A DNA stretch of 64,000 nt, taken from assembly GCA_943736015.1 (NCBI GenBank), contig OX031062.1, positions 55,664,962 to 55,728,961 of the forward strand, read 5' to 3'. The notes beneath the pieces are model-generated. The model searched no databases. It was not told where the DNA came from and saw nothing but the letters and a program-made list of their open reading frames with translations. A program made the translations under genes and the position numbers. This DNA is from Tridacna crocea. Lineage: Eukaryota; Mollusca; Bivalvia; Cardiida; Cardiidae. This document shows, in pieces, positions 41,401 through 44,400 of the stretch (the first letter of the stretch is position 1; every line of letters starts with the position of its first letter).

Positions 41401-44400
41401 TAACTGTTTGAACTTTTAAGCCCATTATATTTTAAAAATACATTGCAGTAAAGAATTCAAAAACCATTAATGTAAGAAGAAAAAGGTTTGATGTTCTTTG
41501 GTGACATTTAAAAATACCTAGAGAGGTTAAATATCATATTAAACCTTTATAACATTATCAGGGTTTTCAATGACTTTGCAAGATAAGGCTTATAACAACA
41601 TTCTAGGTAAAGGAGAAAACGCTGGTAACAAGCATTTTCTCCTTTTCTCACAATGTTTTCTTTCCATCCAAATACAACTTTCAATTTGTGAGTCAGTTTT
41701 GTTGCCTGTAAATGCTTCCAAGTTGGACTAGTCTGAAATTATGTTGTTTAGTAAAGAGTTAATTTGTTTTCTTCAAATGCTTTCAATTTTGACAAGTCTA
41801 TATTCTTAGTCATATTCTTGAGAATTTCGTAACTGTGAAAGTAACAGAACTTATGATTGGCTAAACCATATGGTTTAGCCATATGGTTTAGCCAATCAGA
41901 AGTTCTGTTACTTTCACTGTCAGAAAATCTGGAAGAATAAGGCAAAGAACGTTCTTAAGAATTGTAGGTGAATACGGGCCCTGGTAGCACAATCAGTGGC
42001 CTGCAGAACTTGAAAACAGGGGGTTGCGGGTTTGATGCCTGGCTCAACCAATTTCTTTCGGAGGATTGATGATAGTCATTGTAACAACATTCATTCTTCT
42101 CCCACCATTGACCATTATTCCGACAATGGTTATAATGAGAATGCAGCCATTGGCTAGGAAAGAAAATTGTGTGGAGCACTGGTAAAAGAGACTCCAGGAA
42201 AGCATGGATCGGTGCATTGGTTACCACGATACAACTGAAATAATTTGAAAACAGCTTTAAACACCATACAATCAATCATTGTGCGGAAACATGAATTGAA
42301 CCCTTTAACTCTACCACACGACAAAATTTTAGACTGGTCCAAATTGAAAGCATTTGCTGACAACTAAAGAGATGTGGCTCAAAAACTGAAATTTGTTTTG
42401 AGAAGGGTACATTGTGGGAAAAGGAGAAAATGTTGGTTACCAGCATTTTCTTCTTTTCCCACAATGTTTTCAAATGTCGTCTTTCTCAGAGGTGTTAAAA
42501 GTCGGGATTGTGTGGTAAAGAGTTAAACACCACAAGAATTAGAGATTTTGATTAATCTTGTAGGTTATAGTTGCATGTTAACTTTTTTATCATACAAATA
42601 AGACATTATATGTTCCTGCAATGTTTTGAAAAAACCTCGTGCCAATCGAAACGGTTGCTGTGCTTCATGACAAAATTTTACAGTTGTTCAAATTCAAAGC
42701 TTTTAGACTATTTGCAGACAGCAAAATAAATTTGAATTAAAAATTGGAGCTTGTTTTGGAAAGGGTAGAAAACAAAAGTGTCTACTATGTTTACAGGGTA
42801 TATCTGGTACTGACGTGGCTAAAGAGGCATCAGACATTATCCTCACTGATGATAATTTTACAAGTATCGTAAAAGCTGTAATGTGGGGGCGTAACGTATA
42901 TGACAGTATAGCCAAGTTTCTACAGTTCCAATTGACTGTCAACGTTGTAGCTGTTACAGTGGCTTTCCTTGGAGCCTGTATTATAGATGTAAGTGCTTAT
43001 TGCTTTTACAATTTTATGTTTAACTAAGAGAATTATTAGCTGAAAGGTGGGCAAGCTGATGTAAAAGTCCAGTTTCTGGCATGCATGTGTCTGTATATCA
43101 GCTCTTTACCTTAATTAATCAAGTTTTACACTCTTGGAAAACTTTTCAATTCTGAATTATGTTTTTTTTTTTCCCAACTTAGATTGACATACTGCAAAAC
43201 ACGCTATAGTTCTCGTGCGACTTACACAAAATTGTATGTTCTTAACACACCCTGCCATAGTGAATATGGTGATAGCTTTCTTATTGTGGGAGCATGTGCA
43301 TCTACCTTTTTCATTGCAGTTGTTGTGCTATTGTAGGAGGTATGGTTTTATATTTATTTTCTTGATAATAGTCACAAAATTTTAGCCAAATCCAAATTGA
43401 GAGCATTTGCAGATGACAATTTCAGTGTGGTTCAAAGGGGAAAGTCTTTCTTTGATAGGGTAAAAAACATAATGGGAAAAGGAGAAAATGCTAGTTACTA
43501 GCATTTTCTCCTTTTCCCACAATGTTTTCAAAAGGCTTTTTTTTCCAGGATCGTTAAAAGTTAGTATCATATGGTAAAGGGTTAAAAGACATATTGGGAA
43601 ATAAAGAAGATGCTTGTTGGCAACATTTTTTCTAATTCCTGCAATGTTTTCTAGCTTTTAGCTCATTACCACACAATTCTGTTTTTTGGCGACCCTGAGA
43701 AAGAAGCCTGTAGAAAACAATGTGGGATAAGGAGAAAATGCTGGTAACCAGCATTTTCTCCTTATCCCACCTGTTTTTAACCCTTCCCAAAACAAATTAA
43801 AATTTTTTAGCTAAATTTATTTCGTCATCTGCAAATGCTTTCAATTTTGGCCAGTCTAAAATTTTGTCGTTTGGGAAAGAGATAAAAAGACATTTTTATC
43901 AGTTGAACCATGATTAGTTTGTCATGTGCAAATGTTTTTCGATATGGAAGAGACTAAAATCTTTTGATCAAATAAAAACTTTGATTTAAACTCTCTCCCT
44001 ACAGGACAGTCCCTTGAAAGCTATACAGATGTTATGGGTGAACTTGATAATGGACACTCTAGCTTCCCTTGCCCTAGCCACGGAACTTCCCAGTGAGGAG
44101 CTCCTAGAGCGTAAACCATACGGACGAACAAAACCTCTTATTTCTAGAACGATGATGAAGAATATAATAGGACACTCGATCTATCAACTGATTGTTATAT
44201 TTGTACTACTGTTTGCTGGTGAGTAAACTGTTCGGAGATGTCAATAAATTTTTTTAAACCTTTACCAAACAATCCCTGGTTTTGACGACCCTGAAGAAGT
44301 GGCCTTTTGAAAACCTTGTGGGAGAAGGAGAAAATGCTGGTTACCAGCATTTTCTCCTTTTCCTCAAGGTTTTCTTCACTTTCACTAACAATAAGCATCA

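What the first reader, a model, noticed from the sequence alone, without database searches (positions are those of the whole stretch)
43480..43770. Hairpin arms of single MITE-A copies change together
In a consensus copy the arms are GAAAACATTGTGGGAAAAGG + AGAAAATGCTGGT and the exact complement. Several copies differ from consensus, but on both arms at the paired position: 43489-43502 (CTGG/CCAG to CTAG/CTAG), 43721-43770 (gggAaaagg to gggaTaagg, with ccttAtccc opposite), 26535-26575 (AACAAAG/CTTTGTT), 20600-20667 (five paired changes) and 62329-62395 (ATTGTG/CACAAT to ACTGTG/CACAGT). Half-changed intermediates with G.T pairs occur at 30415-30475 and 44930-44990. Private changes on both arms of single copies suggest one arm is used to correct the other (quasi-palindrome correction or template switching in a cruciform), or selection on an RNA hairpin.
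Basis: seen in the sequence. Interest (0 to 1): 0.85.

Follow-up and report, generated by a model that had tools for sequence, protein, structure and literature searches.

The report
Mobile element hairpin with co-evolving arms
A small, very abundant piece of mobile DNA in an animal genome carries a near-perfect 67-base hairpin whose two halves sometimes change together more often than chance allows, which hints that one half is occasionally copied onto the other, although most changes in individual copies are unpaired.

Summary
The hairpin is real: a 67-nt palindrome (33+1+33) in the middle of a 229-bp, TTAA-ended, piggyBac-type MITE, with 70 scorable copies in 64 kb. Paired changes are real but fewer and less private than claimed. 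In the 50 least-changed family-A copies there are 13 complementary doubles against 3.45 expected (0 of 1000 randomisations); counted once per variant, 7 against 3.16 (18 of 1000). One-arm changes dominate (143 to 13), so correction after insertion is weak. Deeper signals are stronger: families A, B and C share hairpin and ends but have strongly diverged flanks, and the A and B consensus hairpins differ by four paired transversions; one copy has a 3-nt insertion in both arms; spacer changes favour T to A; two copies carry the right half on both sides. Best reading: occasional arm-to-arm copying (fold-back template switching), its products inherited. Selection on the hairpin in active lineages is the main rival. 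Genome-wide copies could not be reached.

The parts
43374..43585 (+). family-A MITE copy; hairpin 43463-43529 with private paired change G30A/C36T
43658..43885 (-). family-A MITE copy; hairpin 43713-43778 with private paired change A15T/T51A
22288..22516 (-). consensus-like family-A copy: 229 bp, TTAA ends, terminal inverted repeats, hairpin 22343-22409 unchanged
   Evidence: fold -99.3 kcal/mol, z -11
25213..25441 (-). second copy with an unchanged hairpin (25268-25334)
26417..26643 (+). older copy; hairpin 26525-26588 with three adjacent paired changes (pairs 17-19) and one at pair 6
40674..40909 (-). copy whose hairpin (40730-40802) carries a 3-nt insertion at the paired place in both arms, the two inserts differing at one base
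44254..44476 (-). copy with private paired transversion A6C/T60G (hairpin 44309-44374)
9102..9329 (+). copy with private paired transversion A4T/T62A (hairpin 9208-9274)
62221..62449 (+). copy with paired T7C/A59G, shared with the hairpins at 13651, 14762, 23781, 32313 and 48390 (family A) and 20609
20503..20719 (+). family-D copy: A-like flanks, perfect hairpin 20609-20675 with four paired differences from A, two of them shared with B and C
11681..11909 (+). family-B copy (others: 7929-8157, 21147-21375, 50131-50359, 60498-60727): same ends and hairpin position, different flanks; consensus hairpin with four paired transversions against A
63589..63818 (+). family-C copy: third left-flank type, hairpin 63697-63763 sharing the paired states at 25 and 30 with B and D, plus two unpaired changes
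31588..31759 (.). derivative with the right half on both sides of the hairpin (R-hairpin-R)
45808..45970 (.). second, weaker R-hairpin-R derivative; one right half is eroded (13.8 bits)

Best explanation
The feature is the central palindrome of a piggyBac-type (TTAA) MITE group. Shown: hairpin and ends persist between families while flanks change, and the consensus hairpins of families differ mostly in pairs. Inferred: this comes from occasional arm-to-arm copying (fold-back template switching, quasi-palindrome correction) while the palindrome is single-stranded in replication or repair, acting over time in the lineages that keep transposing. New insertions inherit the paired variants and then decay mostly by one-arm mutations. 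The same copying, running past the hairpin, would give the R-hairpin-R copies, and a variant of it the flipped spacer. In the copies here the paired excess is roughly 3-7% of the number of one-arm changes (inferred).
For: Excess of complementary doubles, relatively strongest in little-changed copies. On 53 of 70 hairpins (51 distinct) 39 cells changed on both sides against 7.5 in shuffles (0 of 500) and 6-19 with slid partners (includes families B-D, whose shared changes count repeatedly). A and B consensus: four right-arm differences, each opposite one of the left-arm differences and complementary, all transversions without a G.U path (coincidence 2.4e-5, which leaves out a fifth left-arm site that is polymorphic in B). 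Paired 3-nt insertion at 40730-40802, the only paired case among 24 family-A copies with a gap or insertion in the hairpin. Run of three paired changes at 26525-26588. Spacer: 8 of 10 changes are T to A against 148 of 420 at flank T sites (p 0.006); without three copies of ambiguous or meaningless orientation 6 of 7 (p 0.010). Two of 70 copies with right halves on both sides. Arms diverge 0.47 times as much as flanks in 17 close copy pairs.
Against: One-arm changes dominate (143:13); complementary and other doubles are equal (6:6) in 17 close pairs; each variant counted once leaves 7 against 3.16 and Poisson p 0.04. Unbiased correction cannot explain the arm-flank gap, since erased changes would have to outnumber doubles many times. 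Terminal repeats, about 200 bp apart, also evolve slowly and show a paired change shared by 10 copies, without a hairpin loop. T to A as such is not rarer elsewhere: 5 of 38 flank T sites reach the spacer's frequency, and the spacer copies may not be independent. R-hairpin-R copies could come from recombination between oppositely oriented copies. Single B copies have mispaired hairpins (7929: pairs 25 and 30).
Confidence: 0.5

Rival explanations
1. Selection for the hairpin in the transposing lineages (as a protein-binding palindrome, or a DNA or RNA hairpin needed for mobility), with compensatory mutations fixed in masters and inherited by copies; no arm-to-arm copying.
For: Hairpin and ends conserved while flanks diverge; arms and terminal repeats slower than flanks; terminal repeats also change in pairs. 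piggyBac and piggyBat transposases bind palindromic motifs (PMC11707139, passages); a conserved internal region is reported in coral piggyBac-type MITEs (PMC2872659, parts 1-3 of 4).
Against: One mismatch in a 33-bp stem should cost little (inference). The A-B differences are transversions with unpaired intermediates. The paired 3-nt insertion and R-hairpin-R copies are not predicted.
Confidence: 0.3
2. Inheritance of a few master variants plus chance coincidence in old copies; nothing special about the palindrome now.
For: T7C/A59G in 6 family-A copies and G11A/C55T in 4; 13 most-changed copies show 18 doubles against 12.4; under the block shuffle distinct and private variants are within the shuffled range; 20609 shares most of its variants.
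Against: Each variant counted once, 7 against 3.16 remain; T7C/A59G needs at least 4 changes on a poorly resolved flank tree; how masters came to change in pairs stays open.
Confidence: 0.17
3. Gene conversion between copies, homogenising hairpins against one another rather than arm against arm.
For: Very dense copies; arms slower than flanks; family D joins A-like flanks with the B/C-like inner hairpin.
Against: Does not by itself make variants on both arms that are absent from other copies of the window, nor a paired insertion.
Confidence: 0.1

Closest known systems
CMITE elements of Acropora corals (PMC2872659; parts 1-3 of 4 read)
   Same: TTAA-flanked piggyBac-type MITEs; several families; an internal region conserved between families; arrays of copies
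   Different: CMITEs are about 100 bp, their TIRs vary more than the core, and the printed 60-nt core is, by eye, another sequence. Here the element is 229 bp, the core is a near-perfect hairpin with paired changes, and the ends are conserved too.
Template-switch mutations that create and maintain RNA hairpins (PMC8794818; abstract and one results section read)
   Same: Both arms change together; loop inversion as a side product
   Different: Ribosomal RNA genes with inferred ancestors; here copies of a mobile element
Inverted-repeat arm homogenisation and spacer inversion in Saccharomyces cerevisiae (PMC8604942; abstract and passages read)
   Same: Arms of short inverted repeats made identical; spacer inverted
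   Different: Coding genes of yeast strains with parental nodes; no mobile element
piggyBac and piggyBat transposon ends (PMC11707139; passages read)
   Same: Palindromic sites bound by the transposase; TTAA target
   Different: Those sites are short and near the ends; here one 67-nt palindrome in the interior. No transposase gene was looked for in the window.

Membership tests
piggyBac/TTAA MITE | TTAA at both ends | tested here: met
   32 of 45 end-complete copies begin and end with TTAA; consensus TTAA...TTAA
piggyBac/TTAA MITE | terminal inverted repeats with CC[C/T]T just inside TTAA | tested here: inconclusive
   CCCT in families B, C, D and at the right end of A; the A left-end consensus reads CTCT, and one A subfamily reads CCCA
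piggyBac/TTAA MITE | short, no coding capacity, high copy number | tested here: met
   229 bp; 70 scorable copies in 64 kb; no open frame beyond short ones listed across copies
piggyBac/TTAA MITE | moved by the transposase of a related autonomous element | not tested
   no autonomous element looked for; genome not reached
CMITE-like group | internal region more conserved between families than the TIRs | tested here: inconclusive
   hairpin far more conserved than the flanks (A-B 85% against 38 of 93 left-flank sites), but the terminal repeats are conserved as well
CMITE-like group | the published CMITE core sequence | tested here: not met
   by eye only: the 60-nt core printed in the paper is another sequence; no alignment was run
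template-switch (quasi-palindrome) mutation | complementary changes on both arms in excess of chance | tested here: met
   weaker when each variant counts once
template-switch (quasi-palindrome) mutation | several changes by one event (clusters, indels, spacer inversion) | tested here: inconclusive
   single examples and a spacer bias
template-switch (quasi-palindrome) mutation | arises in one step from a known parent sequence | not testable with these tools
   no orthologous insertions or genome-wide copies were available

The most novel reading that the evidence does not exclude
The palindrome is a self-repairing core: in each active lineage fold-back copying, perhaps coupled to the replication or repair around transposition, restores the hairpin from either arm, so the element family outlives the turnover of its flanks, and the same process spins off symmetrical R-hairpin-R elements. 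Its dense copies would then be a natural recorder of template switching in an animal germline.
Probability: 0.25. Interest if true: 0.75.

Novelty: new variant of a known kind. Interest (0 to 1): 0.5.

Why it matters
Template switching in hairpins is hard to measure because few independent replicates exist. An abundant element with a 33-bp palindrome beside unpaired sequence of the same age carries its own control in every copy. With a whole genome and a sister species it would give the rate, tract length and direction of arm-to-arm copying in an animal germline, and show whether a mobile element keeps a structural core that way.

Tried and rejected
Exact hairpin patterns found nothing in viral contigs or in the bacterial and archaeal genome contigs.

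A block shuffle of right arms gave a weaker excess than the margin-keeping null; both are reported. Regression of arm on flank divergence (slope 0.54, intercept -0.029, 53 copies) did not separate slower evolution from an added flank-only part. RNA function: no Rfam match at the gathering score, no strand preference of copies, no clear G.U bias. Duplicated segments with the same insertion, which could have dated changes, were sought through the outer flanks; I looked at the 60 of 78 matches printed and took them for neighbouring copies of the element, without a further test. Homology of the left flanks between A, B and C by gapped alignment: no signal (z 0.2 to 1.0); only ungapped comparison at zero offset gave one.

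Rows dropped: one search used 53 of 70 hairpins, the 17 left out by hand being on the whole the more changed; searches used 55 family-A copies with enough flank, one search's regression 53; families B, C and D were left out; one search used 62 and 63 family-A copies because of different gap limits.

Literature: seven searches. In the listings shown I saw no paper on paired arm changes in MITE hairpins; only open-licence papers are held, so this is no proof of absence.

Full report
What is there. The window is about 35% G+C with no long open reading frame apart from a low-complexity stretch. Three of six exon-like peptides given to Pfam match P-type cation ATPase domains, one of them just under the curated cut-off; from recall the whole looks like an animal plasma-membrane Ca2+-ATPase gene, with MITE copies in its introns. 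A profile from eight seed copies, iterated, gives 173 hits on both strands, 98 after removing overlaps. The family-A consensus is 229 bp, begins and ends with TTAA, has terminal inverted repeats, and holds a 67-nt palindrome (33-nt arms, 1-nt spacer) at positions 108-174. Seventy copies keep a scorable hairpin, 34 on one strand and 36 on the other. One consensus-like copy folds at -99.3 kcal/mol, z -11. Thirty-two of 45 end-complete copies have TTAA at both ends; 22 of 97 neighbouring hits abut within 6 nt, four of them overlapping by exactly four bases, though some abutting hits may be pieces of one copy.

Families. Of the 70, 63 are family A, five family B, and one each C (63589) and D (20503). 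A, B and C share hairpin and ends, but their flanks are strongly diverged: left flanks agree at 38, 37 and 34 of 93 sites (A-B, A-C, B-C) against 26-27 by chance, right flanks at 20, 23 and 26 of 41 against 10-11. Zero offset is the best ungapped offset in five of six comparisons and second in one. Gapped alignment shows the right-flank similarity (z 3.5 to 6.0) but none for the left (z 0.2 to 1.0), so homology of the left flanks is only suggested. The A and B consensus hairpins differ by four paired transversions (pairs 13, 20, 25, 30) plus a left-arm site that is polymorphic in B; single B copies are eroded, 7929 at two of the four pairs. D has A-like flanks (left-flank z 8.5), shares the paired states at 25 and 30 with B and C, and is a perfect palindrome.

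Paired changes within family A. With the number of changes per copy and per column kept, complementary doubles are in excess: 31 against 15.8 in 63 copies (1 of 1000), 13 against 3.45 in the 50 with 8 or fewer changes (0 of 1000); non-complementary doubles are not clearly so (20 against 15.9, 142 of 1000). Shared variants inflate this: T7C/A59G is in six copies, G11A/C55T in four. Each variant counted once, 7 remain against 3.16 (18 of 1000; Poisson p 0.04). A cruder block shuffle gave 31 against 19.5 (4 of 2000) and no clear excess of distinct or private variants. The count tool, on 53 hand-picked hairpins of 70 and with families B-D included, gives 39 cells changed on both sides against 7.5 in shuffles and 6-19 for slid partners. 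T7C/A59G needs at least four changes on the flank tree, which is poorly resolved (43 of 52 inner branches weak).

Against a strong process. One-arm changes number 143 in those 50 copies. In 27 non-overlapping nearest pairs, the 17 closest give mean flank divergence 0.163 and arm divergence 0.077, with 60 one-arm differences, six complementary doubles and six others (my count from its list). If each arm were freely corrected from the other, erased changes should about equal doubles; the deficit in the arms is far larger, so most of the conservation must arise otherwise, for example in the master copies. Partition rates on a fixed flank tree of 62 copies, seven of them of families B-D, agree that arms are slower (0.53 and 0.84 against 1.28 and 1.18 for the flanks), and so are the terminal repeats (0.70 and 0.57).

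Marks of copying. Copy 40730-40802 has a 3-nt insertion at the same place in both arms, the inserts differing at one base; it is the only paired case among 24 family-A copies with a gap or insertion in the hairpin. Copy 26525-26588 has three adjacent paired changes, though the doubles at pairs 18 and 19 each recur in another eroded copy. Spacer changes are T to A in 8 of 10 cases against 148 of 420 at flank T sites (p 0.006; 6 of 7, p 0.010, without three copies of uncertain or meaningless orientation); yet 5 of 38 flank T sites show T to A as often as the spacer. Two copies, 31588-31759 and, less clearly, 45808-45970, carry the right half on both sides of the hairpin; the two halves have since diverged. 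Each of these has another possible cause; together they fit fold-back template switching, which is described as homogenising arms and inverting spacers in yeast (PMC8604942, abstract and passages) and as fixing stems in ribosomal RNA genes (PMC8794818, abstract and one section).

RNA or DNA? Doubles have the same transition share as one-arm changes (12:8 against 140:112), G.U is not clearly preferred to A.C, copies show no strand preference and Rfam has no match at its gathering scores. This leans towards a DNA-level process, without proof.

Known relatives. The nearest published case found is CMITE in corals (PMC2872659, parts 1-3 of 4): piggyBac-type MITEs with an internal region conserved between families. 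The element here is of that general kind, with another core and with conserved ends, and is set apart by a palindromic core that evolves in pairs. I rate it a new variant of a known kind.

Verdict. Paired arm changes: real, modest, partly inherited. Arm-to-arm copying: the best single explanation of how lineages came to change in pairs, at about even odds, with selection on the hairpin as main rival. The decisive data, genome-wide copies and orthologous insertions, could not be reached.

Noticed in passing
31588-31759 and 45808-45970: Two symmetrical elements with the right half on both sides of the hairpin (the second weaker); no L-hairpin-L was seen among the 70 hairpins classified.
   Followed up: partly
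e.g. 24988-25216 with 25213-25441; 34850-35078 with 35075-35283: Copies abut end to end and share one TTAA, as if ends of existing copies were favoured targets.
   Followed up: partly
28564-28884, 31863-32189, 43990-44226 (+): Exon-like stretches of a P-type cation ATPase; similar-looking stretches at 41111, 42707 and 54500 gave no Pfam match.
   Followed up: partly
terminal repeats of family-A copies: A T:A to A:T change at position 8 and its partner at the other end is shared by 10 copies: the terminal repeats also change in pairs at subfamily level.
   Followed up: partly
right flank of families B and C, e.g. 63589-63818: A TGCGT motif followed by an A-rich stretch near the right end resembles, from recall, the palindromic site bound by the piggyBac cysteine-rich domain; not tested.
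   Followed up: no
51492-52413: Low-complexity repeat with open frames on both strands (proline-rich or glycine-rich conceptual products).
   Followed up: no
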